Assembly (NCBI GenBank): GCA_944323145.1
Contig: CALURJ010000002.1
Span: forward strand, 1 to 64,000
Length of the DNA stretch: 64,000 nt
Source: Candidatus Gastranaerophilales bacterium
GTDB taxonomy: Bacteria; Cyanobacteriota; Vampirovibrionia; Gastranaerophilales; Gastranaerophilaceae
Direction: 5' to 3'
Within the stretch, counting starts at the first letter, position 1. Each line of letters starts with the position of its first letter. The notes under the pieces are model-generated. The model ran no database searches and was not told the origin of the DNA. It saw only the letters and a program-made list of their open reading frames with translations. Shown one piece after another: positions 2,486 through 63,906 of this stretch. Position numbers and translations under genes: made by a program.

Positions 2486-3175
2486 TTATAATCTTACAGG
2501 ATAATCGTCCGGAATTTTCCAACCGTTGCATTCAACTAATGCTGTGCAGGCAATACCAACGCTGAAGCCGGAACTTCCTGATTGACCATTTGAGCACAAG
2601 TCATACAATTTTGTTTTAGAATAACTGCAAAAGCTAAAATCTTGTACGTAGTCCATTGTTCCGGTTACAAGATACTTTTGATTATCATGTACAATCAGAT
2701 TAAGAGGAAAAACATTTTTTCCATATATATATTTATTTTTTCCATTGTCAAGATAAACAATGAATAAACCTCTTCTCTGTCCCTGAGTTAGCGTTGGTGC
2801 TCCGTTATAGCTTAATCCAATCCCATTTTTAAGTATGTACTTATTTGTAAAACTTTTTTTAGCTCCTGTAGAGCCGTACACTGAATTGTTGCAAATATCT
2901 TTTGGATCGTCTATATTTTTTTCTTCACAGACAATTCCTATATCCATATAAGGCTGTATATATTGCGCAAATGTTGTTTTTTGACCGTTTGTTATACCCC
3001 AAATGTCAGGGGTTCCATTATCCACAGCCGATAATATAATAGCCTGATTTATTATGCTGACAGCTTGTTTTAATTTGTTTTCAACAACAGATTTTTTATA
3101 ATTTGCAACAAGCGTCGGTATAGTCATTGCCGCAACAACCCCAATAATTCCGAGTGTAATTAAGACCTCAGCCAA
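2486..3175 (-). CDS. Type IV prepilin-like protein with class III signal (locus 1 of 4), out of frame with its own start
   Basis: The readable part begins in the prepilin motif. Upstream codons continue it as KKCA/FTLAEVLITLGIIGVVAAMT: peptidase site after Ala, Glu at +5 and a 20-residue hydrophobic helix. The roughly 200-residue C-domain has several Cys. TTG at 3175 is only an ORF-track start, because it cuts the motif. The likely gene start is the ATG at 3382, which has AAGGAG 8 nt upstream and a TTGACA/AATAAT promoter. From there translation reads MLQNKKLRIAPPPKE and stops, because the C run at 3345-3354 is ten long. With eleven C it would read on to an LLKRTY segment shared with locus 3, but a run of seven A at 3188-3194 still displaces the frame by one. 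So it is phase-off, frameshifted, or mis-assembled in the runs. The product would be exported and polymerised or anchored by a type IV pilin or type II pseudopilin system. Confidence 0.8.
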   Translation of the reverse strand: MAEVLITLGIIGVVAAMTIPTLVANYKKSVVENKLKQAVSIINQAIILSAVDNGTPDIWGITNGQKTTFAQYIQPYMDIGIVCEEKNIDDPKDICNNSVYGSTGAKKSFTNKYILKNGIGLSYNGAPTLTQGQRRGLFIVYLDNGKNKYIYGKNVFPLNLIVHDNQKYLVTGTMDYVQDFSFCSYSKTKLYDLCSNGQSGSSGFSVGIACTALVECNGWKIPDDYPVRL

Positions 3176-3344
3176 GGTAAAGGCACATTTTTTTAGACGA
3201 TAAGACGTTAGGACGATAAGTGCGCTTCAATAAATTACACTTCCCTAATAAGGGATGGGATTTATTTTTACGCGGGCTCTGCGCACAGATAATGGCTTGC
3301 CTTCCTGCCTTCTTACCCTCTTGCCTTTTGTTTGTCACTCTTTC

Positions 3345-3354
3345 GGGGGGGGGG
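3345..3354 (-). repeat. C10 homopolymer in the leader of prepilin locus 1
   Basis: Ten G on the plus strand, so ten C on the coding strand, starting at nucleotide 29 of the reading frame from the ATG at 3382. The core GC10GA follows GAATT. At loci 2 and 4 the same GAATT is followed by TCG10C, its exact reverse complement. Confidence 0.9.
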
Positions 3355-3415
3355 CAATTCTCAGCTTCTTATTCTGTAACATAATAAGAACTCCTTTTCC
3401 CTATACAACATGATT

Positions 3416-3444
3416 ATTATTTACGATTTTAGAGCATTTGTCAA
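3416..3444 (-). promoter_or_regulatory. Sigma70-type promoter of prepilin locus 1
   Basis: On the minus strand TTGACA (3444-3439), a 17-bp spacer, then AATAAT (3421-3416). The AAGGAG at 3396-3391 and ATG at 3382 follow. This supports a gene start at 3382 rather than inside the prepilin motif. Confidence 0.65.
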
Positions 3445-3460
3445 GGATATTTTGCTAATA

Positions 3461-4054
3461 TTAATGCCTGTGATGGTGATGGTGGTGATGATGCGGCGGC
3501 GGAGGCGGCGGAATTATATAAGGATACAGCGGAACAGCAGGTGCAACAATAACGGGTTCCTCAAATTGAGCATCATAATCATCCATAATACTATTATATT
3601 CTTCAAAATTTATAGTATTAGGATTGGAGTCATCCTGATTGTAAATCTGTGAAACTGTTCTGTATCTGTGTTGCCACTGGTAAACCATTGCTGCGGTTGC
3701 ACGTATAGGTTTAAATGCATTCCAGTTTATTATTTCGGTATTAACAACTTCATTTTCTGAAAGTATACCGTTTTCATTTTTATCAATTTCTGCAAATCTC
3801 TCTTCTCTTGATTTGCTTACCTGAACATTTCTGGCATCACCGTATTTGAAGCAAGAAGGAACTTTTACCCTGTTAGAAACCTGAATATAGGTATTATAAG
3901 GATAAATAGGGTACTGAGCGTCTGCTTCTGCCGACGGAGTCATTGCAGCAAGTGCTATTGCTGCCGCACCGGCTGTATTTTTCAGTTTCTTTTTTACAGA
4001 ATTTTCCCCTGTAAAAACAGGTTTTGTCTGATGATTGATTGGTGAAATTCTCAT
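3461..4054 (-). CDS. Secreted or surface EF-hand protein with a polyproline-polyhistidine tail
   Basis: 197 residues from the ATG at 4054, which has AAGGGG well placed upstream; an upstream ATG at 4096 has no ribosome site. The N-terminus MRISPINHQTKPVFTG carries an F-x-G tag found on several unrelated genes here. A hydrophobic stretch follows (AGAAAIALAAMTPSAEADA), likely a signal peptide or anchor. EF-hand loop 1 is DKNENGILSENE, a canonical calcium-loop pattern. A second loop, DDSNPNTINFEE, is degenerate because Asn replaces the central Gly. The C-terminus is six Pro followed by eight His, Arg and His. It probably binds calcium and transition metal, which is inference. It stands alone with no obvious operon partner. 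Not a cloning artefact, since the gene is in ordinary chromosomal context. Confidence 0.85.
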   Translation of the reverse strand: MRISPINHQTKPVFTGENSVKKKLKNTAGAAAIALAAMTPSAEADAQYPIYPYNTYIQVSNRVKVPSCFKYGDARNVQVSKSREERFAEIDKNENGILSENEVVNTEIINWNAFKPIRATAAMVYQWQHRYRTVSQIYNQDDSNPNTINFEEYNSIMDDYDAQFEEPVIVAPAVPLYPYIIPPPPPPHHHHHHHHRH

Positions 4055-4136
4055 ATAATACCCCTTAAATTTAGACCTTATATTTATAATATTCAATAAA
4101 GATTTTTTGTGTTTATTCTTTACGAAAAATTTACAA

Positions 4137-4168
4137 TAAAAAGTACCGGCATAAGGCCGGTACTTTTA
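4137..4168 (-). terminator. Terminator of the acyl-CoA synthetase gene
   Basis: Strong hairpin AAGTACCGGC / GCCGGTACTT with loop ATAAG. It is flanked by A/T runs on both sides, so it could act for either strand. Confidence 0.85.
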
Positions 4169-4185
4169 TATGTATTTAAATTAAA

Positions 4186-6348
4186 TTAGTGGCAAAGTGA
4201 GCATTGACCTGAACAAGACATGTTCAAAGCTTCTTTAGCTTCTTCCATTCTTACTTTAATACGGCCGTCAACTGCAATACCTTCACCTGTTGATTCAGAA
4301 ATTAACAGCGGGTTGATATCTAATTCATCAATGAATTTGAAATCGCTTACCAGTTGTGATAATCTCAACAAGGTTTCCTGAATTTGGGCGATTTGTGCAG
4401 GTTTTGTACCTCTTGCACCTTCTAACAATTTGTATGCCTTAACTGATTTAATCATATCCATAGCATCAACATCTGTTAAAGGAGCAATTCTGAATGTTAC
4501 GTCTTTCATAACTTCAACGAATACACCGCCAAGACCGAACATCATCATAGGACCGTATTGAGGATCTGTTGCAATACCGCAAACCATTTCACGGCTGCCT
4601 TTTACCATTTCCTGAATGATTACACCTTCAAGACCATCTAACAAGCCTTTTGCTTCAAGTCTTTCAAGCAGTCCTTTGTATTCTTTTCTTAATTGTTCTT
4701 CTGATTTGATGTTAACAACAACACCGCCTACATCAGTTTTATGTGATGTAGTTTTTGAAGTCATTTTCATTACGACAGGGTAGCCGATTGAATTACCGAG
4801 TTCTACAACTTCTTCTTCATTTGTTGCAAGACCGTATTTGCAAGCTCTGATTCCATATGCCTGAAGTACGTCGATTGATTCAAGAGTAGTTAATTGTGCA
4901 CGATCTTCTGATAATGCGTTTTTAATAATTTTTTCTACTTTATCTCTGTCAACATCGTAGCATGGAATTTTACCTTCCGGTCTTTCCATCCATAATCTTT
5001 GCTGGTTCAATCTGTTCAAACCGTCAGCAGCTTGTTCTGCGTACATAAAGAACGGCATATTAACGTTCATATCTGACAATTTAGAGAAGAATTCGTTTGT
5101 TGTCATAAATACGCCAACAACAGGTTTTTCTGGATGTTGAGCCTTGATTTCCATCAATGCTTGAGCAACATCAATATCTTTCAAGCCTAAGAACGGAAGA
5201 TAGATTGTAATAATCATATCAACGTTTTCATCGGCAATCACTGTTTCAAGAGTTTGTTTGTAGTGTTCGATAGGTGCTGATGCAATCATATCTATCGGGT
5301 TTTTAACAGATGCAGCTGCAGGTAAGAAGCTTCTCAATTTTTCTTTTGTAGCATCTGAGATTTTAGCCATCTGCATACCGTATTCACAAACAGCATCTGT
5401 AGCCATGATACCGGGGCCGCCTGAGTTTGTAATAATTGCTACTCTGTCGCCTTTTGGTATCGGGCTGTTAGCAAATACTTTAGCTGTTTCAAAAAGGTTC
5501 TGCAAAGAAAATTCTCTGATAACACCAGATTGATGAAGCAATGCTGCAGCAGCTTTATCAGCACCTGCTAAGGAACCTGTGTGAGAAGATGCAGCGGATG
5601 CACCTGCTGCTGAACGTCCTGCTTTTAATGCTAAAATTGGTTTCTTTTTAGTAATTCTTGATGCTAATTTTCTGAAATTAGCAGGATTTTGAATTGATTC
5701 CATGTAAAGCAATATTTGCTGAACATCGTCATCATTTTCCCAATATTCAATAGCTGTTTCAGCGTTAACATCAGCCTGGTTACCTATTGAAATGAATTGT
5801 GCAAAACCAAGATTTAAGTCTTTTAAGATATTTAAAATACCGCCGCCTAAAGCTCCTGATTGAGAAACAAAACCGATGTTTCCGCGTTCAGGTAAAGATT
5901 CTGCAAAACATCCGTCCATTCTGATTTCGGGGTTAGTGTTTACAACGCCTAAGCAGTTTGGACCAACGCATCTCATACCGTATTCTTTAACTTTTTCAAC
6001 TAATTGTTTTTCAAGTTCTGCGCCTTCTTTGCCGGTTTCTTTGAAGCCAGCAGTAATTATACATAAACCTTTAATGCCTTTTTCGTGGCACTGGTCAATT
6101 GTTGATAATACAAATTTAGCGTTAACAACAATAATTGCAAGGTCAACTTCTCCGGGAACTTCCAAAACAGAAGTGTAAGCTTGAAGTCCTTCAATTATAC
6201 CGCCTTTCGGGTTTACAGGATAAATTTTTCCGTTGAATTTGTATTCCTGTAATCTTTTCATGATATCTGAACCAATGGTGTGTTCTTTTGTTGACGCACC
6301 GATAACCGCTATTGATTTCGGTTTCATGATTTTGTCTAAAATGTTCAT
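4186..6348 (-). CDS. Acetate/acyl-CoA ligase (ADP-forming), alpha-beta fusion
   Basis: 720 residues. The family makes ATP from ADP, Pi and an acyl-CoA, releasing the free acid, which is typical of fermenters. The CoA-binding domain is N-terminal (PKSIAVIGASTKEHTIG) and is followed by the succinyl-CoA-synthetase-like ligase domain (VGPNCLGVVNT, GFVSQSGALGGGIL). The ASSHTGSLAGAD block holds the phosphorylated His. A C-terminal ATP-grasp domain (about residues 480-705) contains the GYPVVMKMTS and GGVFVEVMKD segments. Order and length match fused ACD enzymes. The ATG at 6348 has AAGGA upstream. The last residues, CSGQCSLCH, are Cys-rich, an uncommon tail that could bind metal. Substrate range cannot be read from sequence. 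It is a single-gene unit with its own terminator. Confidence 0.93.
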   Translation of the reverse strand: MNILDKIMKPKSIAVIGASTKEHTIGSDIMKRLQEYKFNGKIYPVNPKGGIIEGLQAYTSVLEVPGEVDLAIIVVNAKFVLSTIDQCHEKGIKGLCIITAGFKETGKEGAELEKQLVEKVKEYGMRCVGPNCLGVVNTNPEIRMDGCFAESLPERGNIGFVSQSGALGGGILNILKDLNLGFAQFISIGNQADVNAETAIEYWENDDDVQQILLYMESIQNPANFRKLASRITKKKPILALKAGRSAAGASAASSHTGSLAGADKAAAALLHQSGVIREFSLQNLFETAKVFANSPIPKGDRVAIITNSGGPGIMATDAVCEYGMQMAKISDATKEKLRSFLPAAASVKNPIDMIASAPIEHYKQTLETVIADENVDMIITIYLPFLGLKDIDVAQALMEIKAQHPEKPVVGVFMTTNEFFSKLSDMNVNMPFFMYAEQAADGLNRLNQQRLWMERPEGKIPCYDVDRDKVEKIIKNALSEDRAQLTTLESIDVLQAYGIRACKYGLATNEEEVVELGNSIGYPVVMKMTSKTTSHKTDVGGVVVNIKSEEQLRKEYKGLLERLEAKGLLDGLEGVIIQEMVKGSREMVCGIATDPQYGPMMMFGLGGVFVEVMKDVTFRIAPLTDVDAMDMIKSVKAYKLLEGARGTKPAQIAQIQETLLRLSQLVSDFKFIDELDINPLLISESTGEGIAVDGRIKVRMEEAKEALNMSCSGQCSLCH

Positions 6349-6400
6349 GTTTCGTCCTTTCTTTCTTATTTAGTTATTAGTTAATTTATTAAAAAGTAGT

Positions 6401-7015
6401 TTAATATCCTGCCGGAATCCACTCTCTCACTCGGAATTTAGCTCCCAAATCTTTTGAGATTTTTTCGCATTTTTCAAGGTCAAGGTGTTTTCCTTTATAG
6501 CCTTCTACAACGCTTGCAACAACAGATATTCCTTCACCAGAACAGGCCTTAATAAATTTTTTCATCTCGTCGTAAGCCTCATCAAATTTTGGTTGTGAAA
6601 GCTCATTATACTCTTCTTTTGTTGAACCGTTTAAGCTTACCGAGAATTCATCAACAAGGCCTTTTAATTCCGGCACAACATTTCTTTTATAAACAAAATT
6701 TGCATGTCCGTTTGTGTTTACACGAATTTTTGTATCGGGGTATTTTTCCTTGATATATTTAGCGACTTCTTTTAAAATATCAAGCTTCATCATAGGTTCC
6801 CCGTAGCCGCAGAAGATAATTTCTTTTGTCGTCTCAAAAGTTTCAAATTGTTTTATTACATCAGCGGCTGTGGAATTTTCATTGTCAAGCCAGAGTTCCT
6901 GCCCCTTTACATCACTTTTATCTTTTCTAAGGCAAAAGATACAGTCATTTGTACATCTGTTAGTAAGGTTAATATATATTTTTCCGTCGAGTAAATATAC
7001 TAAAGTGTTTGACAT
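6401..7015 (-). CDS. TatD family-associated radical SAM protein
   Basis: 204 residues from the ATG at 7015, with AAAGG 8 nt upstream. An upstream ATG at 7072 would add 19 residues outside the family consensus. The radical SAM cluster motif is CTNDCIFC (C-x3-C-x2-C) near residue 18, after YLLDGKIYINLTNR. GYGEPMM is the SAM-binding GGE-like segment, and VNTNGHA follows. The short length and the C-terminus REWIPAGY fit the small radical SAM family usually encoded beside TatD nucleases. No tatD gene is adjacent here. The reaction is unknown. It runs away from prepilin locus 2, whose promoter lies in the intergenic region. Confidence 0.82.
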   Translation of the reverse strand: MSNTLVYLLDGKIYINLTNRCTNDCIFCLRKDKSDVKGQELWLDNENSTAADVIKQFETFETTKEIIFCGYGEPMMKLDILKEVAKYIKEKYPDTKIRVNTNGHANFVYKRNVVPELKGLVDEFSVSLNGSTKEEYNELSQPKFDEAYDEMKKFIKACSGEGISVVASVVEGYKGKHLDLEKCEKISKDLGAKFRVREWIPAGY

Positions 7016-7073
7016 GACAAGCCTTTCGATAACTAAATTATCGCATGGGCAAAATTTTTTTACAAGCATCATA

Positions 7074-7102
7074 TTGAAATGTTACTATTATAATGTTATA
7101 CT
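7074..7102 (+). promoter_or_regulatory. Sigma70-type promoter of prepilin locus 2
   Basis: TTGAAA (7074-7079), a 17-bp spacer and TATACT (7097-7102). ATACTTTTCATAAAAGTAT is a perfect dyad just at and after the -10. AAGGAG and ATG at 7146 follow. Confidence 0.75.
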
Positions 7103-7175
7103 TTTCATAAAAGTATCAAAAAATGGACAGAGAAGGAGTGATAAGATGGTATTTTTGCGAATTCAGAGGAATTTC

Positions 7176-7185
7176 GGGGGGGGGG
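7176..7185 (+). repeat. G10 homopolymer in the leader of prepilin locus 2
   Basis: Ten G beginning at codon 11 of the frame opened by the ATG at 7146. At G10 that frame gives MVFLRIQRNFGGGALKAF and stops. With one more G the frame is open through a 57-residue leader into the prepilin motif. Confidence 0.92.
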
Positions 7186-7309
7186 CACTCAAGGCTTTTT
7201 AAGTTTTTTCGGAGCAAATAATTTTTTTACAAAAGTACTAATATTTACTATTTATGAAAATAAAAAAATTTGTAATAACTGTTATATATCACATCTAAAA
7301 TATAAAGCA

Positions 7310-8044
7310 TTGGCGTTTACCCTTGCAGAGGTTTTAATTACTCTTGGTATAATTGGAGTTGTTGCTGCGATGACACTACCCTCTTTAATTTGTAGTTGGA
7401 ATGATAAGGCAAGTGTTGTTAAAGTAAAAAAAGCCTATTCAATTCTAAATCAAGCATATTTAATGTCTAAAGAAGATAATGGGCCTGTTAGTGAATGGAA
7501 TATTGAAGAATTAACAGATTTAGTACCTTATTTTACTCAGTACATTAAAAATATAAAAATTTGTAATGATACAAACATAAATGGGTGCAAAGCTATGGCT
7601 ACATATGATTTAACAGGTAAAAGTTATACTAATAATTTGGAATACTATCATTTTGTAGATGCAAGCGGAATTGCTTATGTGTTTAGAGACAACTACCCTG
7701 TATCTACAGCTGATGCACAAAAATATGGAGGTAGTTATATCCAATCCAGTTTGCAGATGGCTCGAATGTATGTAGTTATTGTTAATATAAACAGTAAAAA
7801 AGAAGTTTTAAGGTATGGAATTGATACATTTGTATTTGTTATAACGGATAAGGGGATTGTCCCCTATGGAGTTATCGGGTGGCAAAAGGAACAAATGTGT
7901 AATCCTACAACTCCATCATCTAAGCCGGGGTATTGGAACGGTATGGGATGTGCAGGATGGGTTATAAGTGAGGGGAATATGGATTATATGAAGTGTTTAA
8001 GGGGCAATCAAAAATATTGTGAACGTGGGAACTATAACCCTTAA
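7310..8044 (+). CDS. Type IV prepilin-like protein with class III signal (locus 2 of 4), probably phase-variable
   Basis: 244 residues from an in-frame TTG at 7310, but this start has no ribosome site. The frame is open without a stop back to the G run at 7176. The likely start is the ATG at 7146, preceded by AAGGAG and a consensus promoter, and it needs G11 (or G8/G14) instead of the G10 seen. The motif is ALA/FTLAEVLITLGIIGVVAAMTLP: cleavage after Ala, Glu at +5, hydrophobic helix. The C-domain holds paired Cys (CNDTNINGC, CNPTTPS, CAGW, CLRGNQKYC), consistent with disulfides in an exported minor-pilin-like protein. The fused leader would be about 57 residues, far longer than normal class III leaders. 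No pilin assembly genes are in the window. Expression state in the sequenced cells: off, if the G10 is real. Confidence 0.85.
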   Translation: MAFTLAEVLITLGIIGVVAAMTLPSLICSWNDKASVVKVKKAYSILNQAYLMSKEDNGPVSEWNIEELTDLVPYFTQYIKNIKICNDTNINGCKAMATYDLTGKSYTNNLEYYHFVDASGIAYVFRDNYPVSTADAQKYGGSYIQSSLQMARMYVVIVNINSKKEVLRYGIDTFVFVITDKGIVPYGVIGWQKEQMCNPTTPSSKPGYWNGMGCAGWVISEGNMDYMKCLRGNQKYCERGNYNP

Positions 8045-9615
8045 TTATTTTTCTTGTTTTTTTCTCCTGAATAATCTGCCGTACCCGGGAAACTGTTTTG
8101 ACCTGTTGTCATCTTAGTAATCCAGTACTGCATTTTTGGAATTAGGGTAGATAGGAATAATGCAGAGATTGCAAAACCTACAGACCAATTGCAGGTATTT
8201 TTAATAAAGTTTTCGCGTGAGGCTCTTTCAAGAACCTGTGATGTAATTTCTGTTTTATTTTTACGTGCTTTTTCAATAATTTTAGAAACATACTGGAAGA
8301 TATCTTCTTTCAGATCTGCAAGTTCTTGATAATTTACATACCTGTATTTATCTGTTGATGCATTTTGGGTTGCAACACTGAATACATTTTGCAGGAATTC
8401 AGGCATGTTAATAGCACCTTCTCTAAAGATATCTTTTACCTGATTTTTGGTAAGAACTGACACCCCTTCAACTTCCGGTTGAAGTTTTGACATGCGTTCA
8501 GCAAGATTTGTATATTTGGAGATATCTTTATCTGTAAATTGTTTTGTTTGTTTTAAGTAAGTTTTGAATTCGTCTAAGGATATAACTTTGTGTTCATCGA
8601 ATTTACGGATTAAATCTCTGTCAATAAATCCTACATTACTGTTATCACCGATTGCTGCTCTGGCAAATGATTCAACATCCATTTTTCCGCCGTTTTCTTT
8701 TAACACCGCTTCAAGATGGTCAGTTACCTGTTTTGCAGCTACAGGGTCAAGTCGAGTCTTTCTTCCGTCTTCTATCTGATTTAACCATCTGTTAATATTT
8801 GGCATACTAAACATATAGAAATATATTGATGTTAAGTCACGGAATAAGACTTCAGTTCTTTCATGTTTGTTTCTTGAACTGATAGCGCGACCGCCAGCTA
8901 TACCCACATCTGTTGAAAGAAGCTGATAAGTTGCATCATTTTCAAATTTGTTTGCTATAGAAAGCAGGGCATTATAGTTCATTCCAAATGGAATATTTTT
9001 GTTATCTTCTGATTTTAAAAATTTGTCTATTGATAATTGTTGATAAGTATATGTACTTGATGAGTTCTGATTGTTATCATCATTATTGCCGAAATGTTTT
9101 TGGTGGTACACTGCTGTTATATGTTGGTTAATTTTTGGTACTACCAATCCGACAAGAACGTTAGCGAGTATAATACTTGAGCCTATTTTTAAAGCTTTAA
9201 ATACGGCAATTTGATTTTTTGTAAGGTTTTTGATTAATTGTCCGGTTTTACCGGCAAGTTTCGCTTTTGTCTTTAAAAGTTTATCGTCGTGTAAAAAGTT
9301 TTTAAGCGGTTTTCTAACACCGTCTTCCTGTGCATCAAAATCAGCAGTGTGCAGTTTAAGGATTTTTTTGCCTATCATGTCGTTCATTTTATTGAACATT
9401 TTGACGCCTGCAAACCAGAATAATGCACCAATTGATTCTTCGGTAAATCTTTCCCTTGCCTCTTCAAAGCCACCTCTTTTGTATGCCTGAACAGTTCTTC
9501 CGCCTGTTACAAAACATTCTAACAGAATTAAAGGAGCCAAACTGCGACTTGCAAGACCGCGGACAAATCTGCGGGGGTAACTGAATTGTGAAATTGTTTG
9601 AGGTCTTACTTCCAT
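8041..9615 (-). CDS. Large membrane-associated protein of unknown function
   Basis: 524 residues. Hydrophobic segments lie near residues 24-40, 82-95, 165-185 and 480-500. A long helical soluble part between about 230 and 470 lies between the last two. No catalytic motif is recognised. The N-terminus MEVRPQTISQFSYPR loosely resembles the F-x-G tagged N-termini of neighbours. The start at 9615 has a weak GGAAA upstream. The 3' end overlaps the convergent prepilin locus 2 by 4 nt (8041-8044). It is divergent from the 9810 gene, also a membrane protein with F-N-G near its N-terminus, and the two may share a regulatory region. It looks lineage-specific; homology is unknown. Confidence 0.75.
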   Translation of the reverse strand: MEVRPQTISQFSYPRRFVRGLASRSLAPLILLECFVTGGRTVQAYKRGGFEEARERFTEESIGALFWFAGVKMFNKMNDMIGKKILKLHTADFDAQEDGVRKPLKNFLHDDKLLKTKAKLAGKTGQLIKNLTKNQIAVFKALKIGSSIILANVLVGLVVPKINQHITAVYHQKHFGNNDDNNQNSSSTYTYQQLSIDKFLKSEDNKNIPFGMNYNALLSIANKFENDATYQLLSTDVGIAGGRAISSRNKHERTEVLFRDLTSIYFYMFSMPNINRWLNQIEDGRKTRLDPVAAKQVTDHLEAVLKENGGKMDVESFARAAIGDNSNVGFIDRDLIRKFDEHKVISLDEFKTYLKQTKQFTDKDISKYTNLAERMSKLQPEVEGVSVLTKNQVKDIFREGAINMPEFLQNVFSVATQNASTDKYRYVNYQELADLKEDIFQYVSKIIEKARKNKTEITSQVLERASRENFIKNTCNWSVGFAISALFLSTLIPKMQYWITKMTTGQNSFPGTADYSGEKNKKNN

Positions 9616-9809
9616 AATTATTTCCGTTAAAACATGTTATTTAATATTCCTGAATGTTTTTTTTTGCCTTGAGTTTAAAATTTTTTAATATTTTGTTACA
9701 AGATATAATGTTGTTTATACACTAATTAAGAATTGTAAAAAATATATGTGAAAATAACAATGTTTTTTATTTAGTGTTTTTGTTAAAATTGGAATAGAAG
9801 GTAAGTAGT
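9616..9809. promoter_or_regulatory. Divergent promoter region between two membrane-protein genes
   Basis: 194 nt, very AT-rich. TATAAT at about 9704-9709 reads rightward, and TAAAAT lies about 9785. No single convincing -35/-10 pair could be fixed, and no ORF was seen. Confidence 0.35.
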
Positions 9810-10586: not shown

Positions 10587-10587
10587 T

Positions 10588-12600: not shown

Positions 12601-12642
12601 AGTATTTTAAAACTTAAACAAAAATTTTTTTGCTAGTATTTT

Positions 12643-27727: not shown

Positions 27728-27885
27728 AAAAAAAACAGGAAGTTTAAAATTCATTTTCCCCTCCTGTTAAGATTTACACTAGCCGAAATATAAATAGCAT
27801 GTTTATTATACAATTTTTTTTCAAAAAATACAAATTATACTAAGATTTGTAACGAAAGTACATAATTAAACAAATTTATAAACCA

Positions 27886-54179: not shown

Positions 54180-54224
54180 TTTTAAAGTTATTTATTATTA
54201 TATTTATTATGAAAGGGAAGCAAA

Positions 54225-55111
54225 ATGAGAAATGTGTTATGTAACGATACCTTCGGGGGGGGGGCGTTCTAGGCTCAGCCGGAAGACATGAGGTTAAGGA
54301 GGCAAGAGGTCAGGCTAGTATCGGAGAGCAAGGCTCACAAAAAAGTAAATACCTTCCCTTAATAGGGAGGGGAAAAGTGACTTTTTTGAAACGAACTTAT
54401 TCACTTAAGAAAAAAGCTGCTTTCACTTTGGCTGAGGTTTTGATTACTCTCGGCATAATTGGTGTGGTTGCCGCTATGACAATGCCTGTATTGGTTGCAA
54501 AATATCAGCATAAAGCTCTCGAATCCGCTTTTAAAAAGACTTATTCATCTTTAATGCAGGCAATGATATATGCTGAACCGGAAACAATAACTGATATAAC
54601 TGGCGGAGGTGTTGTCGGTGGCGACAGTTAATTTTATTCGAAATTATGGGAAAAATATAATGTTGTTGAGAATATGACAGAAAAAGATAGGTTTGCTATG
54701 GATAAAATTTATAGCTCGGATGGCGTGGGAAATATAAAATCTTACAGTAAAAAACAGGATGCGGATGTAGAATGCCCGCAAAAACCAAATTTGATGGCCG
54801 CAGATGGAACATCTGTTGGCGGTTTATATAATTGTGCAGGTATGTGGATAAGTATTGACGTTAATGGTCCTTATAAAAAACCGAATGCGCTTGGCCACGA
54901 TATTTTTTATTTTAGTGTTGATAGTCAGACAAAACAGCTGTTTCCGCTTGGAATGAATAAAGTTACAGGCTATTGGAATTTTTCAGCTAAGGACAGGTAT
55001 TGTTCGGTAAATTCTACTGATGTTAAAAATGGGTATGGTTGTACATCTTTTGCTCTTGCCAATAAGTGCCCCGATGATGCTTCTAAATCATATTGGGAAT
55101 GTTTACCATAG
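54225..55111 (+). pseudogene. Type IV prepilin-like protein (locus 3 of 4), G-run frame break plus one in-frame TAA
   Basis: The ATG at 54225 has GAAAGGG and a consensus promoter. The G10 run puts it out of frame. With G11 it reads through a leader containing KYLPLIGRGKVTFLKRTYSL and into KKKAA/FTLAEVLITLGIIGVVAAMTMP. A GTG at 54377 with AGGGAGGGG upstream is an alternative start independent of the run. After residue 85 of that frame a TAA at 54629-54631 interrupts the gene. The same frame then continues uninterrupted from 54632 to the stop at 55111, with the Cys-rich C-domain typical of these proteins. One nonsense base is enough to explain it. So it is either a recent pseudogene, or a readthrough or assembly error. 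Confidence 0.8.
54255..54264 (+). repeat. G10 homopolymer in the leader of prepilin locus 3
   Basis: Ten G beginning at codon 11 after the ATG at 54225. At G10 translation gives MRNVLCNDTFGGGAF and stops. With G11 the frame is open for 66 residues into the prepilin motif. Confidence 0.92.
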
Positions 55112-55126
55112 AATGGCGGGTGATGT

Positions 55127-55154: not shown

Positions 55155-55160
55155 TAAGTT

Positions 55161-56488: not shown

Positions 56489-58970
56489 AACAATTAGAAT
56501 AAATGAATTAGCAAAAGAACTCGGACTTACGAGTAAGGAAGTTATAGAAAAATTTGCACAGATTTCTGTAACCGGCAAAACTCATTCCAGTACAGTTACC
56601 CTTGATCAGGTAAAAAGATTAAAAGAATTTATTGCATCAGGCGGTGTTAAAGAGGCTAAAAAACCAAAAGCTTTTGTTGTGAAAAAAGCAAAAACTTCAG
56701 ATAACGAGCCTGAAATAAAGGAAGAACCTAAAGAAGAAAAGAAACCTGCTTTGAAAACATCTATTCCAAAAGTTGAGGTTGTAAAACCAAAACCGCAAAG
56801 CCGTTTGGAAATTGTCAGACGTGCACCCAAAAAACCTGTAACTGATAAAAATGAAACTGAAGCAAAACGTCAGCCTATGAGCACTGAACGACCGCCCAGA
56901 GGAGAAAAAGGCAAACCTTTCCCTGCCAGAAAGGACGGCAGTGCTCCGGCTAAAAAACCTTTTGAAAGACCGGCGGGCGAAAGAAAACCTATTCAAAGAA
57001 CAATTATTTCACAGGATATTTATGAAAATAAAGGACAGGGCAGAAGACGTTCGGCCGACGGAAAGAAAAAAGGAAAAGACTTTAATTCTAAAAAAGAAGA
57101 ACAGGAAAGAATTTCTTTAGAAAAGGCTGCTGCTCAAAAACATAAGAAAAAAGTTCATAAAGAAGAAGAAGTTAAAGAAGTTAAACAGATTGTTGTAAAT
57201 CGTGCAATGACAATCAGCGAGCTTGCGGACAAAATTCAGAAAACTCCCGCCGAAATAGTTAAATTTTTGATGTTTCAGGGGATTATGGCAACTGTAAACC
57301 AGCTTATAGATGTTGATGTTATTAAAAAAGTATGCGCTGAATATGACCTTGAGGTGCTAGACGAAGATTTAGACGCTTACATGGAAGAAGAACTTGAAAA
57401 AGAAGAAAAAGTTAAAAAATTAAAAGAAGTTGATTCCAAATTATTAAAAAAACGAGCACCTGTTGTAAGTATTATGGGGCACGTTGATCACGGTAAAACA
57501 ACGCTGTTAGACAGTATCAGAGCTTCTAAACATAAAATCGTTGCAACAGAAGTAGGCGGTATTACCCAATCTATTGGTGCTTATACTGTTTATCTTGATA
57601 ACAATAAAGAAAAGAAAATTGTGTTTGTTGATACTCCGGGGCACGAAGCTTTTACAGAGATGAGAGCCCGCGGGGCAAAAGCTACAGATATCGCAATCCT
57701 TGTTGTTGCGGCTGATGACGGTATAATGCCCCAGACGATTGAGGCTATTAATCATGCGAAAGCTGCAGAAGTTCCTATTATCGTTGCAGTTAACAAGATT
57801 GATAAACCGGGAGCTAACCCTGATAAAATTTTACAGCAGTTAACCGAACACGGTCTTGTCCCTGAAGAATGGGGCGGGGATACTATTACTGTTAAAGTTT
57901 CTGCTTTGCAGGGAACAGGTATTGATGAATTACTTGAATATATTCTTCTGGTTGCCGATCTTCAGGATCTTAAAGCTAATCCGAAAGCGGAAGCTTCGGG
58001 GGTTGTAATTGAAGCTAATTTGGATAAAGGCAAAGGCCCTGTTGCTACATTGCTTGTCCAAAACGGTACTTTGCGTGTAGGCAACTGCATTGTTGTCGGA
58101 ACTGCTTGCGGTCGTGTAAGAGCATTGCTGTCCGACAGCGGAGAAAGAATTCAAAAGGCTGAACCTTCCACTCCTGTAGAAATTTTGGGTCTAACAGAAG
58201 TTCCCCAGGCAGGTGATTACTTTGAAGTTGTTAAAAATGAAAAAGAGATGAAAACAATTGTTGAAGAACGTAAAGAAAAAGAACGCAACAAACGTCTTGA
58301 TGCAATGCTTCCTGCTCACGTCAGACGTGAGGCTGTTGCGGGCGAAGATGATATTCCGCAGTTGAATTTGATTATTAAAGCAAATACTAACGGTGCTGCG
58401 GAAGCGGTTTCTCAGGCTATTGCCCAATTGGATTCAAAAGAAATTAAAACAAAAATTATTCACGTTGGTGTCGGTGATATTTCTGAAGCTGATGTTATGC
58501 TTGCTTCTGCTTCGGGTGCTTTGATTTTAGGCTTCACTGTTAAGGAAGATGCAAACGCTCTTGCGGCTGCTGAAAAAGAAGGAGTTACAATCAAGAAATA
58601 CGATATTATTTATCAAATTCTTGAAGATATTGAAAAAACAATGCTATCGCTTCTTGAACCTGAAATTAAGGAAGTTGAACTCGGTAAGGCAGAAGTCCGC
58701 CAGGTATTTACAATCGGTAAAACAACAAGAATTGCGGGTTGCTATGTAACAGAAGGCAAGATTGTCAGAAGTAAAGATGCGGTTCTTTATCGTGACGGAA
58801 AAGAACTGTTCCGCGGTGCAATTGATCAGTTAAAACGTTTCAAGGATGATGTGAAAGAGGTCGCTCAAGGCTTTGAATGCGGTATATCATTTAGCAAATG
58901 GAATGATATTGAAGTCGGCGATATTATAGAAGTTTCTACCAAGGAAGAAGTAGAACGCCAGAGTCTGTAA
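56478..58970 (+). CDS. infB: Translation initiation factor IF-2
   Basis: 830 residues. IF2-N domain (residues 1-55), a long charged linker (about 60-240), a second IF2-N-like domain ([27 protein letters not shown]) and then the GTPase: G1 [13 protein letters not shown]3 [17 protein letters not shown]4 NKIDK, G5 SAL. Domains II-IV complete it. It brings fMet-tRNA to the 30S subunit. It is cotranscribed with ylxR and followed by rbfA after 45 nt. Confidence 0.97.
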
Positions 58971-59015
58971 TTTTTCTGGTTTTATGTTATACTGATTTTT
59001 ACTAAGGAGAAAATT

Positions 59016-59360
59016 ATGACTCTAAGAAATGAACGTGTTAGAAAAGAATTAATGAGAGATATCTCTGATATTTTGCGAAAGGAAGTCAGAGGACTTGCCG
59101 GTGTTGTATCGGTTGTTGATGTTGAAGTTTCTCATGACAATTCATTTGCAAAAGTTATATATAGTGTTCTGGGCTCTGATGAGCAGGTAGAAAAAACAAA
59201 AGAAATTATTGAAAAAAGTACCCCGAAAATCCGCTATGAAGTCGGTAAACGTATACGGCTCAGATTAACTCCGGAATTAAAATTTGTTTATACCGATTCT
59301 CTGGAAAAAGGTTCGAGAGTGAGCGAAATTATTGATAAAATTTCCCGCGGAGAGCTGTAA
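59016..59360 (+). CDS. rbfA: Ribosome-binding factor A
   Basis: 114 residues. The single KH-like domain shows ERVRKELMRDISDILRKEVRG, VDVEVSHDNSFAKVIYSVLG and the end RLRLTPELKFVYTDSLEKGSRVSEIIDKI, the family signature. It helps mature the 30S subunit. It has its own AAGGAG and a TTATACT promoter-like box in the 45-nt gap after infB, so internal initiation is possible. Confidence 0.95.
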   Translation: MTLRNERVRKELMRDISDILRKEVRGLAGVVSVVDVEVSHDNSFAKVIYSVLGSDEQVEKTKEIIEKSTPKIRYEVGKRIRLRLTPELKFVYTDSLEKGSRVSEIIDKISRGEL

Positions 59361-59365
59361 TCCTT

Positions 59366-60217
59366 ATGTTTGGATTTTTGAATATTTATAAACCCAAAGG
59401 TATGACATCTCATGATGTCGTGGCAAAATTAAGACGGATTACAAAAATAAAACAGATAGGACATACCGGAACTTTAGATCCTTTTGCCGAGGGCGTTTTG
59501 CCTGTTTGTGTAGGGAAAGCAACACGGCTGATTGAATATTTAAGCGATGATAAAGAATATATTGCAACAGTTCAATTCGGAGCTGCAACAACGACTTATG
59601 ATTTGGAAGGCGAAAAAACTTATGTTTCCGATAAAAAGGTAAACCAAGATGATGTTGAGAATTTTTTGAAATATTTTGAAGGCGAAATTTCTCAGCTCCC
59701 TCCGATTTATTCGGCAATAAAAGTTAACGGCAAAAAACTCTATGAATATGCGCGTAAGGGTGAAAAGGTTGAAGTTGCCCCGCGTAAAGTTACTGTATAC
59801 AGTATAAAATTAAAAAGTTTTGACTATGACTTACAGCAGGCTGAAATTCTTGTAAAATGTTCAAAGGGAACATATATTCGCTCTATTGCGCATGATCTAG
59901 GACAAAAGCTAGGATGCGGTGCATATCTTGTAAGGCTTATTCGAACTCAGGCAGGGTGTTTCAGGATTGATGATTCCATTGGATTAAAGGACGATATGAA
60001 TATTTATGATAATCTTATCAACCCTGTTTTTAAACTGAATTATCCTCAATATGCCGTTGAAGATGATGAACTTGATAAAATTAAACATGGAATGCCGATA
60101 AAAAATAAAAATATTGAGTATGGCAGTATTGTTATTTTGATTTATAATAAAAATGAAATCTGCGCTGTTGGTGAAGCAGATAATGATAAGATAAAATTAA
60201 AGAAAGTGTTTTTATAA
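59366..60217 (+). CDS. truB: tRNA pseudouridine(55) synthase
   Basis: 283 residues. IYKPKGMTSHDVVAKLRRI and GHTGTLDPFAEGVLPVCVGKATRL hold the catalytic Asp. Also GAATTTYDLEG, YSAIKVNGKKLYEYARKGE and CSKGTYIRSIAHDLG. It modifies U55 of tRNA. It lies 5 nt after rbfA, and its stop overlaps the next start (TAATG), so translation is coupled. Confidence 0.96.
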   Translation: MFGFLNIYKPKGMTSHDVVAKLRRITKIKQIGHTGTLDPFAEGVLPVCVGKATRLIEYLSDDKEYIATVQFGAATTTYDLEGEKTYVSDKKVNQDDVENFLKYFEGEISQLPPIYSAIKVNGKKLYEYARKGEKVEVAPRKVTVYSIKLKSFDYDLQQAEILVKCSKGTYIRSIAHDLGQKLGCGAYLVRLIRTQAGCFRIDDSIGLKDDMNIYDNLINPVFKLNYPQYAVEDDELDKIKHGMPIKNKNIEYGSIVILIYNKNEICAVGEADNDKIKLKKVFL

Positions 60218-61071
60218 TGAAAAAGATTTTGTTAACAATATTATTGCTGGCTGCCGGACAGATGAGTTTTGCGTCATGTGATACGCAAAATTGCATCCCT
60301 CCTTATGATTTAACATCGGGGTTTTCAAGATTTTTCAGTAAGGTTACGGGACAAAATTTTATCGCTGAAAAAGTTGGTGAAAGTATTGCAAAGAAAGCGA
60401 TAAAAAAGGAAATTACAAGCGGTAAAATTGATGTTAATTTAAAATCTTTCAGCACAAGAGATTTGAAGGCCGGCAGGTTTAAGTCACTTGAAATTATTGG
60501 CAAGGATATTGTTGTAGACGGAATTTATATTTCGTATTTTAGAACTAAAACCATTTGCGATTTTAACTATGTTGTTCAGGATAAAAATGGCGATGTTATA
60601 GTAAAAGAAGATATTCCGGTTTATGCTGAAACAACAATCACAGAAGATGATTTGAATAATACTATGAATTCCGCGGATTACAAACGTCTTGTAAATGATA
60701 TAAATATGCTTGGCGGAAGTTTGAATTTATTCCAGATTGTTTCTACATCGGTAAAACTTAAAAAAGGAAAAATGTTCTATATAATGAAATATTCGCTTCC
60801 TTTTGTAAGAAAACCGCAGGAAATTGTTATAAGTGCAGATTTGTGCGTTCATAACGGCGAGATTATTCTTGCAAATACAAATTTTGTCAGTGAAAATCTT
60901 GCTCTGGATATTAATAAATTTTCTAAATTATTGAATTATATTAACCCACTTGATTTTTCTGCTAAAATACTGGAAAATAAAAATGCGAGATTTAATATTC
61001 GCAATGTCAATGTCTCCGGAGATAAAATTACGTTTGACGGAACGATTACAGTTTTAAAGGATAAGGAATAA
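60217..61071 (+). CDS. Exported DUF2993 (LmeA-like) protein
   Basis: 284 residues. Signal peptide MKKILLTILLLAAGQMSFA with Cys after it. IDVNLKSFSTRDLKAGRFKSLEIIGKDIVVDGIYISYFRTKTICDFNYV is the DUF2993 pattern. The family in actinobacteria and cyanobacteria includes lipid-binding or phospholipase-like proteins of the envelope. The role here is unknown. It overlaps truB and is 4 nt from the next gene, so it belongs to the same transcript. Confidence 0.8.
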   Translation: MKKILLTILLLAAGQMSFASCDTQNCIPPYDLTSGFSRFFSKVTGQNFIAEKVGESIAKKAIKKEITSGKIDVNLKSFSTRDLKAGRFKSLEIIGKDIVVDGIYISYFRTKTICDFNYVVQDKNGDVIVKEDIPVYAETTITEDDLNNTMNSADYKRLVNDINMLGGSLNLFQIVSTSVKLKKGKMFYIMKYSLPFVRKPQEIVISADLCVHNGEIILANTNFVSENLALDINKFSKLLNYINPLDFSAKILENKNARFNIRNVNVSGDKITFDGTITVLKDKE

Positions 61072-61075
61072 AAAC

Positions 61076-61681
61076 ATGCGTAAGAACGAAAGAGTTTTTT
61101 TATTGGTAACGGGTGTAATAATGGTTGCTGTATGCTGTGTTTTGGGCTTAAGAATGCTTTATCATAATGATGAAAATGTTTCAGGCCCTCTGACTCCTGT
61201 TCCTGAAACTCAAATTCCGCCGGAAGAAAAAGAACCTGCTGCAAAGCCGGTTGAAAAAGTTTATGTGAATGTTTTCTTTATCGGTCAAAATGCCAATAAA
61301 GAAGAAGTTTATAAAGCTGTTAACAGGGAATACGATAAAGACGTAGACGGATCCAAAATAAAATTTGCTATTCAATCATTGATTGCAGGCCCAAAACCTG
61401 ATGAAAAAGCAAAGGGCGTATATTCTGAAATTCCTGACAGTACAAAAGTAATTTCGATTAATGAATCTGCCGACAAGGTTATTATTAATCTGAGCGCTGA
61501 TTTTGAAAACGGCGGAGGAACAGACAGTCTTTATAAAAGAATTTATCAAATTATAAAAACATCTAAACAAAATACTACAAAGCCTGTTTACCTTTATATA
61601 GAAGGTAATAAAGCAGATGTTATAGGCGGTGAGGGTATAATGATAACACAGCCTTTGAACGATAATTCTCTGGACGGATAA
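61076..61681 (+). CDS. Membrane-anchored GerMN-domain protein
   Basis: 201 residues. An N-terminal anchor (about 8-28) is followed by a Pro/Glu linker. The GerMN domain (about 60-190) is marked by YVNVFFIGQNANKEEVYKAVNRE, IKFAIQSLIAGPKPDEKAKGVYSEIPDSTKVISI and VIINLSADFENGGGTDSLYKRIYQII. The domain occurs in the Bacillus germination protein GerM and in envelope lipoproteins of many bacteria. It directly follows the DUF2993 gene, and the next start abuts its stop. Confidence 0.85.
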   Translation: MRKNERVFLLVTGVIMVAVCCVLGLRMLYHNDENVSGPLTPVPETQIPPEEKEPAAKPVEKVYVNVFFIGQNANKEEVYKAVNREYDKDVDGSKIKFAIQSLIAGPKPDEKAKGVYSEIPDSTKVISINESADKVIINLSADFENGGGTDSLYKRIYQIIKTSKQNTTKPVYLYIEGNKADVIGGEGIMITQPLNDNSLDG

Positions 61682-61951
61682 ATGAGCATAAAAGATTTAG
61701 ATTATTACCTCAATTTGAACTGGACACTTATAGAAGGTGAAGATTTAGATTTTGACGGGAATCCTTATCATTATATTGAGATAAGGGAAATTCCGAGTTT
61801 TTTATTTTGTGCGAAGACCGCTGAAAAAGCTGCTGCAGGCTATAAAACACAGCTTAAGTGGACTCTTCAGGTTATGCTTGAAAAAGGCGTTCATATCACA
61901 GAACCGGGTGAAGATGATGACGAACCTGATTGGGAAAAATTGTGTCCTTAA
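61682..61951 (+). CDS. Small HicB-like protein without a HicA partner
   Basis: 89 residues. It has the HicB-type order: a beta-strand IREIPSFLFCAKTAEKAAAG, a helix QLKWTLQVMLEKG, then HITEP and an acidic tail. In HicAB toxin-antitoxin pairs such a domain binds the small HicA toxin and carries a DNA-binding tail. Here no HicA is next to it and the DNA-binding domain is missing. It may be a stand-alone housekeeping relative. It abuts the GerMN gene, so translation is coupled. Confidence 0.6.
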   Translation: MSIKDLDYYLNLNWTLIEGEDLDFDGNPYHYIEIREIPSFLFCAKTAEKAAAGYKTQLKWTLQVMLEKGVHITEPGEDDDEPDWEKLCP

Positions 61952-62064
61952 ATAAAAAAGTGTTATAACAAGTTTAATATTGTTGATAAAGAAAGGATAC
62001 AACATAATTAAGTATTAATAACCTAAAATATCCATTGTTTTCTTGTAAATCTGTTATTGAAAAG

Positions 62065-62093
62065 TTGAAAAATGTACCAAAGCATGTTAAAAT
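62065..62093 (+). promoter_or_regulatory. Sigma70-type promoter of prepilin locus 4
   Basis: TTGAAA (62065-62070), a 17-bp spacer, TAAAAT (62088-62093). AAGGAGAG and ATG at 62122 follow. Confidence 0.7.
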
Positions 62094-62121
62094 ATATATA
62101 AATATTGTTTAAGGAGAGAGA

Positions 62122-63906
62122 ATGGAAATGTTAAAAAAATGTTAAGAATTTCGGGGGGGGGGCTGCTTTAAGCCTTGCTATACACTCGCAGAAATAGTTG
62201 TCGTTATACTTATTATAGCTGTAGTTACTGCTGTAACTATTCGTGTAACTAAAGCTAAATTAGATAATATTGTCTTTTATACTTATAATACTGCTTATAA
62301 TACTTTGAAGTCTGTAACATCTTCCATTTTAGCAGATTATAACCCTAAAAATGATGATTATATTTTGACATTTGTGCATAAATCCGGCAATTGTCTAAAT
62401 CATTCTCTAAGTTTTTAGATTCTATGTTCAATAATATTATTTTGCCTGTCTATGCCGTAAATAGTGCAACGCATTATTATTTTTTATAGAGATTATCTTG
62501 AAATTTATGATACTCAATACAGTTTTTCTCAAGTTTTAAAGTCATATAAACTCCCTGATGGTTCTAAAAAATTATTTACCTTCCCTGATGCTGAAGTAAA
62601 TTGGCCTTATATTACAGCATCTGTTTATAATCTTGATGAAGATTTTGTAATGTGCCCCGGACATTATAGATCAGTCATACATTATGGCGGAGGAGATGCA
62701 GTTGATAAGCATACTACGTATGATAAAAAAAGTGACCCTGATTTTTGTAAAAAAGCCTGCTATGTGCATGATGGAAAAAATAATAAAACAGAAGTCAATG
62801 TGTATGACAAGGATAGTTGCGGAAGATATTTCTTTTTGGTCAGTGGCTGCAGTGCTGATGGATTGGGCACCGAAGATACGTATATATACAATATAGCATT
62901 GAAGCAGAATGCGGTTAAGCCAAATCTTGCTACATATATAAGTGATTATCATAGTTATTATACAAATGAACTTGCTGATATGTGTAGTTTTTATATTACT
63001 AATGAACCTGATTCTGATGAACCGATTGAAGACGATAAAACCACCCCTGTAAATCCTGATGATGATAATCCAATTAATCAAGATCCTGATAATTCCGATG
63101 AACATTGTAAAGAAGCAGCTCCTGCTATTATGCCTTGTGGGAAACAATGGGATGATTCAACCTGTGCTTTAGTAGATATAAGTAATTTTCCACCGGAATG
63201 CGGTACAGGTTACGAATTTAACAGTAAGGATGAAGTTTGAGCTTGTGTGTCAACAGTTCGAACTATTCCGCGTAAGGGGGAAAATTTTTGTAAACTTGTT
63301 GCAGAACGCGTAAATACAAAACCAAATACTGTTGATTGTGCTGGTACTGCAATAGTATCGGGTATAACTGATTTTTCATCTAAAAAACCTGATATAGTTT
63401 TACGAAATGGAATGAAAATTTATAATATAAGCCAAAATCCTGTTTCTATACAGGTTTTAGCAAATAATATCGATGAAGGTTCTTACAGAGATTCTTCTGG
63501 AAATGAAATAAAAATAAATGAATATGGTTATACCGTATATGTCGATATTGACGGTGATAATGGGGCTTCTGTTTTATGGGATGATATTTACCCGTTTTAT
63601 ATAACTATGTCGGTGCATGTAATTCCTGCTTATGATAAAAAATTGAATCCGGATGGCTGCGGCGGTGATAGTAAACAGTTTTTGCAGGTAAGTGTATTGC
63701 ATGAAATGATATCTGACAGAGGTACAAGAAAGCTTTCTTGGTTAGCAAAGAGTGTAAGTTTTCAGGAAGGTGCTTGTATTGAAGGCTATGTCGGTGAAAA
63801 TACCCCATATTGCCGCAATGACAATTACCGTATACATGATTTTTGTATGGCGGACACTTCAGTGTGTAGACTAAAAATAGTCCGTCCATTGAGGTCATTT
63901 TTATAA
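62122..63906 (+). pseudogene. Large type IV prepilin-like protein (locus 4 of 4), several frame breaks
   Basis: About 595 codons. The ATG at 62122 with AAGGAG opens MEMLKKC and stops at 62143 because of a 7-A run. After the G10 run the frame gives CFKPC/YTLAEIVVVILIIAVVTAV, a prepilin motif with Glu at +5. Reading frame then shifts near 62390 (good sequence continues in another frame as QLSKSFSKFLDSMFNN) and shifts back near 62470. A single in-frame TGA at 63238-63240 interrupts an otherwise continuous C-domain rich in Cys, Asp and Asn, including an NPDDDNPINQDPDN stretch. The later open segments are 62464-63240 and 63247-63906. This is a decayed member or, less likely, badly assembled. A TTGTCA/TATAAT promoter for the next gene lies at 63934-63961. 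Confidence 0.75.
62153..62162 (+). repeat. G10 homopolymer in the leader of prepilin locus 4
   Basis: Ten G, 31 nt after the ATG at 62122. It follows GAATTTC exactly as at locus 2. With G11, and a 6-A instead of 7-A run at 62133-62139, the frame reads MEMLKNVKNFGGGGCFKPC and enters the prepilin motif. Confidence 0.9.

What the first reader, a model, noticed from the sequence alone, without database searches (positions are those of the whole stretch)
2486..63906. All four prepilin-like genes carry a ten-base G (or C) run between the start codon and the prepilin motif
Seen directly: the only four G/C runs of about ten bases that I found (3345, 7176, 54255, 62153) all lie 27-31 nt after an ATG with a Shine-Dalgarno and a sigma70-type promoter, upstream of the only four FTLAEV/YTLAEI genes. 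In an AT-rich genome this is not chance. All four runs are exactly ten long. At ten, every locus yields a short dead-end peptide. At eleven, loci 2 and 3 open cleanly into the prepilin, while loci 1 and 4 also need one A removed from a nearby A7. Known precedent: poly-G/C slippage gives phase variation of surface proteins in Neisseria, Campylobacter and others. Inference: a multigene phase-variable pilin family. That all four are off together could mean a shared off state, transcript slippage that restores G11, or systematic undercalling of eleven as ten.
Basis: partly seen in the sequence, partly recalled or inferred. Interest (0 to 1): 0.93.

Follow-up and report, generated by a model that had tools for sequence, protein, structure and literature searches.

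The report
Default-off poly-G switches on pilin genes
In a gut bacterium related to cyanobacteria, 35 of 59 pilin-type gene starts have a run of G or C just upstream, usually ten bases long; across this and related genomes most of the runs scored are one base short of the frame that reads into the pilin, and in the genomes of this genus examined the G side lies almost always on one strand, inferred to be the replication leading strand; the runs would likely slip during copying, so that any one cell is predicted to switch on only a few pilins from a large, mostly silent set.

Summary
The four ten-base runs are real, beyond chance, and one corner of a genome-wide system. The genome (probably Candidatus Gastranaerophilales) has 47 runs of G8 or more; 36 lie just upstream of prepilin motifs. 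Of 150 scored pilin loci (7 genomes, 3 genera) 123 runs are exactly 10 long, 133 need a length of 8 or 11, 115 are one base short and 25 are in frame. Poly-G and poly-C leaders both show this. In the window's genome 8 of 8 long non-pilin ORFs with a run are in frame, seven at length 10, so ten is not simply eleven miscalled. Of three near-identical locus pairs between genomes, two differ in run length. The G strand follows GC skew, not the gene; it switches twice in one 1.8-Mb genome. Best reading: slipped-strand phase variation with OFF as the usual state, giving sparse pilin expression; inferred from assemblies, with no read data. New: the lineage, the scale, the common one-short frame, and a leading-strand lock in two genera, absent or weak in two others.

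The parts
3345..3354 (+). Locus 1 run: G10 on the + strand, read as C10 by a minus-strand pilin gene
3335..3382 (-). Locus 1 short ORF (ATG at 3382, 15 aa) with Shine-Dalgarno; promoter-like site 3444-3416
2486..3226 (-). Locus 1 prepilin frame (246 aa open; N_methyl and DUF6613); not open back to the run
7176..7185 (+). Locus 2 run: G10
7146..7202 (+). Locus 2 short ORF at length 10 (18 aa); promoter-like site 7074-7102
7310..8044 (+). Locus 2 prepilin body (244 aa; frame open from 7145); many relatives carry DUF6613 (PF20318)
54255..54264 (+). Locus 3 run: G10
54225..54272 (+). Locus 3 short ORF at length 10 (15 aa)
54377..54631 (+). Locus 3 prepilin frame, ended by an in-frame TAA at 54629-54631; a further ORF follows at 54674-55111
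62153..62162 (+). Locus 4 run: G10
62122..62145 (+). Locus 4 short ORF (7 aa), ending before the run; promoter-like site 62065-62093
62146..62418 (+). Locus 4 prepilin frame, stopped at 62416-62418; further ORFs at 62464-63240 and 63247-63906
3242..3254 (-). Palindrome CCCTTATTAGGGA in the leader of locus 1 (12 copies of CCCTTAWTAGGGA in the genome, 8 between a run and a prepilin motif)
54356..54368 (+). Palindrome CCCTTAATAGGGA in the leader of locus 3
1..410 (+). 3' end of 23S rRNA and 5S rRNA on the + strand, a marker that + is probably the leading strand here

Best explanation
These runs are likely slipped-strand phase-variation switches: in 123 of 150 scored pilin loci the run is exactly 10 bases long, and in 115 of the 150 it is one base short of the frame that reads into the pilin, so a slip to the next length would turn a gene on and a slip back would turn it off. 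Shown here: a start codon with a Shine-Dalgarno, 21-33 nt before the run in 140 of the 150; a leader of 7 to 182 residues after it; a prepilin frame open through the leader; an excess of runs one base out of frame, in poly-G and poly-C leaders; long non-pilin ORFs of the window's genome in frame at the same length; run lengths that differ between near-identical loci of different genomes; G on the GC3-positive (inferred leading) strand whatever the gene's direction, in two genera. Inferred: that tracts slip in living cells, that 10 is the length to which slippage returns, that off is therefore the usual state, and that each cell shows a few pilins while the population keeps many in reserve. The leading-strand lock would make every tract meet the fork in the same way, giving all loci a similar slippage set point; this link is a proposal.
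For: 47 runs of G8+ in the genome, 36 of 47 within 800 nt upstream of an N_methyl match, serving 35 of 59 matches at E 1 or better. 150 pilin loci scored out of 199 runs examined: length 10 in 123; required length 2 mod 3 in 133; in frame 25, need +1 115, need -1 10. The two other frames are open over the same leader in 14 of 300 cases, 1 of 162 for leaders of 30 codons or more (the pilin frame was chosen as the longest, so this is a weak control). Non-pilin runs of the window's genome: 8 of 8 long ORFs in frame, 4 further runs too short to judge; they include three GT2 and one GT8 glycosyltransferases. Pairs of loci alike across the run: 16 of 58 differ in length, paralogues included; of 3 pairs between genomes at 94% identity or more, 2 differ. 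Adhesin-like pilin family in the genus: 14 of 27 readable loci (30 fetched) have a run (G9 1, G10 9, G11 4), 6 of the 14 in frame; 13 have no run and read straight into the motif. Strand: 27 of 27 adjacent same-contig pairs of C-preceded runs concordant here against 25:14 for prepilin matches; G036 has 48 sites and two within-contig switches; 23 of 23 and 17 of 17 runs on the GC3-positive strand. In genus g16 (G050) the lock rests on 66:3 pair concordance, not on skew. Pilus-type ATPases and one prepilin peptidase are encoded. A paper passage says C. jejuni poly-G tracts shift from insertion bias at 8-9 to deletion bias at 10-11 (PMC4085013).
Against: No read-level or isolate-level data: length variation within one population was not seen. 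Tracts under free slippage might spread more widely than 123 of 150 at one length. Paralogues share descent, so the 150 are not independent. In this genome C-sense pilins are mostly in frame (7 of 8) and G-sense mostly not (4 of 23), which I cannot explain; elsewhere the gap is small (5 of 28 against 9 of 91). Outside this genome non-pilin runs are in frame in only 9 of 23, so the default-on contrast is not general. The strand lock is weak in G051 (g17, 23:11) and absent in G133 (g29, 2:8), so it is not needed for the switch; two A-preceded runs of the window's genome also break it.
Confidence: 0.8

Rival explanations
1. Programmed slippage: the run is kept at ten so that RNA polymerase or the ribosome slips by one on every transcript and gives a steady low yield of pilin, with no DNA change.
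For: Length 10 and the one-base offset prevail in pilin loci of both senses; pilin frames are kept open.
Against: Loci in frame at 8, 9, 10 and 11 exist; near-identical loci differ in length; relatives of one pilin family without any run read straight into the motif; non-pilin genes of this genome read in frame at 10. Poly-G and poly-C RNA would both have to slip the same way.
Confidence: 0.12
2. Sequencing or assembly error: the true length is eleven, called as ten, and these pilins are simply on.
For: Length 10 dominates in independent assemblies: 15 of 17 runs on 15 NODE-named contigs and 20 of 27 on 21 k127-named contigs (contigs picked by a G9+ pattern).
Against: Seven non-pilin genes of the window's genome are in frame at called length 10; lengths 8, 9, 11 and 13 are called in the same assembly.
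Confidence: 0.05
3. Pilin graveyard: duplicated pilin genes that are drifting after inactivation.
For: Loci 1, 3 and 4 of the window carry further breaks.
Against: 150 of 199 runs keep a frame open from the run through a prepilin motif; offsets cluster on one class (133 of 150).
Confidence: 0.03

Closest known systems
Campylobacter jejuni poly-G/poly-C contingency genes (29 tracts of 7 or more in NCTC11168; PMC4965091, abstract and passages read)
   Same: G/C homopolymers inside reading frames at lengths of 8-12; surface structures (capsule and LOS, abstract of PMC8437040 seen in the listing).
   Different: Here the tracts of the window's genome sit mostly before pilins at a near-fixed distance after the start codon, most scored ones are off by the same base, and in this genus the G strand follows GC skew. 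Whether Campylobacter tracts follow the replication strand was not tested here.
Neisseria meningitidis homopolymeric phase variation (PMC4085013, passages read)
   Same: Mostly intragenic tracts; both senses used (18 poly-G and 21 poly-C among 50 homopolymer loci in that paper).
   Different: There the tracts serve many unrelated genes (recalled); here one pilin family with a shared leader design.
Neisseria pilE/pilS pilin antigenic variation (recalled)
   Same: Many pilin variants held in one genome, few shown at a time (here predicted).
   Different: That works by gene conversion from silent copies into one expressed locus; here most run-bearing loci have their own start codon and Shine-Dalgarno.
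Bordetella fim2/fim3 poly-C switches (recalled)
   Same: Homopolymer control of fimbrial subunits.
   Different: There the tract lies in the promoter; here it lies in the coding leader.

Membership tests
Slipped-strand (homopolymer) phase-variable genes | Homopolymer tract whose length sets the reading frame of a surface gene | tested here: met
Slipped-strand (homopolymer) phase-variable genes | Tract length differs between close relatives at the same locus | tested here: met
   2 of 3 near-identical pairs between genomes differ; G9, G10 and G11 in one pilin family
Slipped-strand (homopolymer) phase-variable genes | Reversible length change within a clonal population at high rate | not testable with these tools
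   no reads or isolates available
Slipped-strand (homopolymer) phase-variable genes | In-frame and out-of-frame states both present in nature | tested here: met
   25 of 150 in frame, 125 out of frame as assembled
Type IV pilin / type II pseudopilin | N-terminal methylation motif (PF07963) | tested here: met
   59 matches in the genome at E 1 or better, 48 over the curated cut-off; locus 4 is the weakest, E 0.88. Loci 1 and 3 also; locus 2 over cut-off but not found when its 244-aa body alone was scanned
Type IV pilin / type II pseudopilin | Long N-terminal helix followed by a beta-rich domain | tested here: inconclusive
   locus 2 model: helix 5-57 then strands, mean pLDDT 88; no solved structure matched at E 0.001 or better
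Type IV pilin / type II pseudopilin | Assembly ATPase and prepilin peptidase in the genome | tested here: met
   PF00437 5 of 6 matches over cut-off; PF01478 1 match
Pilin antigenic variation by gene conversion | Silent donor copies without start sites feeding one expressed locus | tested here: not met
   31 of the 46 runs examined in this genome have a Shine-Dalgarno start and an open prepilin frame; gene conversion itself was not tested

The most novel reading that the evidence does not exclude
Replication polarity is built into the switch: in this genus long G-tracts are held on the leading strand so that fork passage pulls them back to ten, and pilins are framed to be on only one step above that set point, making a self-resetting, default-off repertoire of dozens of pilins per genome in which lagging-strand genes use a mirror-image poly-C leader (TTC-GGG-GGG-GGG-GGC read as GCC-CCC-CCC-CCC-GAA) to keep the same rule.
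Probability: 0.3. Interest if true: 0.87.

Novelty: new variant of a known kind. Interest (0 to 1): 0.74.

Why it matters
Genomes of this genus hold up to 173 C-G10 runs, against 29 G/C tracts in C. jejuni NCTC11168 (PMC4965091), in an uncultured gut lineage for which my searches found no report of phase variation. It offers a way for a commensal to show few pilins while holding many, and gives many natural tests of whether the replication strand sets the direction of G-tract slippage, since some genera of the same family are strand-locked and others are not.

Tried and rejected
A conserved DNA motif 3' of the run (AGC 5-14 nt after it) looked promising in the window's genome (non-pilin runs 9 of 12, control stretch 1 of 12) but failed in G015 (2 of 7, control 2) and G050 (0 of 3), so I do not rely on it. 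I considered an inserted mobile element read in both orientations; the near-fixed spacing to the start codon in both senses and flanks that change between genera speak against it, though C- and G-sense leaders being mirror images in codon phase remains curious. The fold search gave no usable match. Papers: 0 hits for phase variation + poly-G + leading strand; one review for a wider query (passages read), which says G tracts on the leading strand cause more substitutions; it gave me nothing on strand and phase-variable tracts. One search (phase variation, homopolymeric tract, pilin, gut, commensal) listed 7 papers, of which I read passages of one (PMC4085013).

Rows dropped before counts: the 4 A-preceded runs (two of them, C4:57657 and C21:19652, lie on the strand opposite to their neighbours) and contigs with one site; the same call gives 52:2 for listed sites of seven genomes. 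In one search only listed sites were counted (G015 100 of 114, G050 91 of 91, G051 59 of 89, G133 13 of 43). In one search, 49 of 199 runs had no readable prepilin frame or no Shine-Dalgarno start within 100 nt, among them window loci 1 and 4; the 199 come from 10 genomes, most of them sampled only in part, and the 150 scored from 7 (all 8 of genus g29 from G133). In one search, 5 of 40 stretches with GC3 skew under 0.08 were dropped, one of which held a run. Scoring by longest ORF instead of Shine-Dalgarno start gives slightly different counts (own 11 of 32, G007 2 of 21 against 0 of 21). In one search, 2 of 18 other genus genomes had no TTC-G8 (G006, G013).
Full report
Where it is. The window is the first 64 kb of contig 2 of a 1.885-Mb, 35-contig, 99.95% complete genome. 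A scan of named species genomes for the run with its commonest flank returned 39 stretches, all from records titled Candidatus Gastranaerophilales, Candidatus Melainabacteria or uncultured bacterium. So it is almost certainly a gut Gastranaerophilales, a non-photosynthetic relative of cyanobacteria.

The four runs, their length of ten, their place after an ATG, and the short dead-end peptides are as described. Only locus 2 has a full-length body.

It is genome-wide. There are 47 runs of G8 or more; 43 follow a C and 4 an A. 36 lie within 800 nt upstream of an N_methyl match, 26 in G-sense and 10 in C-sense; 35 of 59 matches (48 of the 59 over the curated cut-off) have one. In 697 kb of two sister genomes, runs of 9 or more G number 39 and runs of 7 or 8 number 0, so the long runs are a class apart. 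An order-wide draw found C-G10 in 179 of 286 genomes: 26 of 26 of the window's genus, from 1 to 173 per genome, and at most 3 per genome in 22 genomes of other families of the order.

How the frames lie. I scored every fetched run with a readable prepilin frame and a Shine-Dalgarno start within 100 nt: 150 of 199 runs, from the window's genome, G015, G007, G036 and G030 (same genus), G050 (genus g16) and G133 (genus g29). 123 are 10 long. 133 need a length of 2 mod 3, in practice 8 or 11. 25 are in frame, 115 need one more, 10 one less. If frames were random a third would be in frame. The window's genome is the most mixed (11 of 31 in frame, 15 one short, 5 one long); G007 has 0 of 21 in frame, G015 1 of 20, G036 with G030 5 of 37, G050 7 of 33, G133 1 of 8. 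Leaders from run to motif are 7-182 residues, median 31. Paralogy makes these counts non-independent, but both a glycine-type leader (poly-G) and a proline-type leader (poly-C) show the offset, and so do genera with different flanking residues.

Is ten a miscall? In the window's genome 8 of 8 long non-pilin ORFs with a run are in frame as assembled, seven of them at 10 (4 further runs lie in ORFs too short to judge); they include three family-2 and one family-8 glycosyltransferases and a radical-SAM protein; three have no Pfam match. That argues against a uniform loss of one base. Elsewhere non-pilin runs are in frame in 9 of 23, so default-on is not a general rule for them.

Do lengths vary? 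Of 58 pairs of loci alike across the run, paralogues included, 16 differ in run length; of three pairs between genomes at 94% identity or more, two differ; at 98.2% identity over 501 nt the window's genome has 9 where G015 has 10, both out of frame. In a family of adhesin-like pilins (S74 chaperone domain and YadA-head repeats over cut-off, N_methyl below it), 14 of 27 readable loci in the genus have a run (G9, G10 or G11), 6 of them in frame, while 13 have none and read straight into the motif. A metagenomic protein 99% identical to locus 2 carries four glycines in frame with its leader; its DNA was not seen. This is variation between assemblies, not within a clone.

Strand. In the window's genome 27 of 27 adjacent same-contig pairs of C-preceded runs agree, against 25 of 39 for the prepilin matches (of the 4 A-preceded runs left out, two disagree with their neighbours). 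G015 71:1, G050 66:3, but G051 (g17) 23:11 and G133 (g29) 2:8 (listed sites only). In G036, 48 sites switch strand twice within contigs in 1.8 Mb, and local GC3 skew changes sign inside the same two intervals; 17 of 17 and 23 of 23 runs in sampled stretches are on the GC3-positive strand. Shorter G4-G6 runs are 571:412, long ones 39:0, Fisher P 2e-9. GC3-positive is taken as leading by convention; the window's rRNA genes on the same strand agree. Skew was not measured in G050, and no origin was mapped.

Reading. Tract, frame, surface-type gene and length differences between relatives are those of slipped-strand phase variation. The unusual part is that the commonest length is the off length for most scored pilins. 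A published passage says C. jejuni poly-G tracts tend to grow at 8-9 and shrink at 10-11 (PMC4085013); if the same holds here, ten is where tracts settle and eleven is a passing on state. Then a genome with dozens of such pilins would show few at once. That step, and the idea that the strand lock keeps all tracts under the same slippage regime, are inference. The mostly in-frame C-sense pilins of the window's genome (7 of 8) do not fit it well; elsewhere C-sense loci are in frame in 5 of 28 and G-sense in 9 of 91.

Novelty. Searches for Gastranaerophilales with phase variation gave 0 papers; homopolymer with Gastranaerophil- gave 13, of which 10 were listed and one checked, where the word concerned sequencing error; Melainabacteria with phase vari- gave one flagellin paper, not read. 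Type IV pilus genes have been reported in the lineage (PMC5877343, passages). I file it as a new variant of a known kind.

Noticed in passing
G000:C12:59404 (L246), also C30:9041 and C7:47008: Pilin-type proteins with open frames of 641-705 aa; the C12 one joins a weak N-terminal methylation motif to YadA-head repeats and a phage-tailspike-type S74 chaperone domain. Relatives of its N-terminal part in 29 of 33 genomes of the genus.
   Followed up: partly
window 3242-3254, 54356-54368; 12 copies genome-wide: A palindrome CCCTTAWTAGGGA lies between run and motif in 8 pilin loci; other leaders contain translated repeat-like stretches such as VILNLFQDL.
   Followed up: partly
own genome pilin loci: C-sense pilins are mostly in frame (7 of 8) and G-sense mostly not (4 of 23), Fisher P 0.0009; in the other scored genomes the gap is small, 5 of 28 against 9 of 91.
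   Followed up: partly
G051 (genus g17), e.g. L297, L303, L311: No pilin among 34 runs examined; instead a repeated short ORF family (GGGVNRSYQRFWRFFDFLLSPE) and a cluster of other genes carry the runs; 9 of 59 listed runs lie within 200 nt of a contig start.
   Followed up: no
window 27773-27790: A 22-codon frame with an FTLAEI motif, perhaps a relic or chance.
   Followed up: no
own genome C9:24665 (L018), C19:12064 (L023), C1:83574 (L058), C19:17489 (L073): Glycosyltransferase genes with C/G runs that are in frame as assembled, so one slip would be expected to break their frame.
   Followed up: partly
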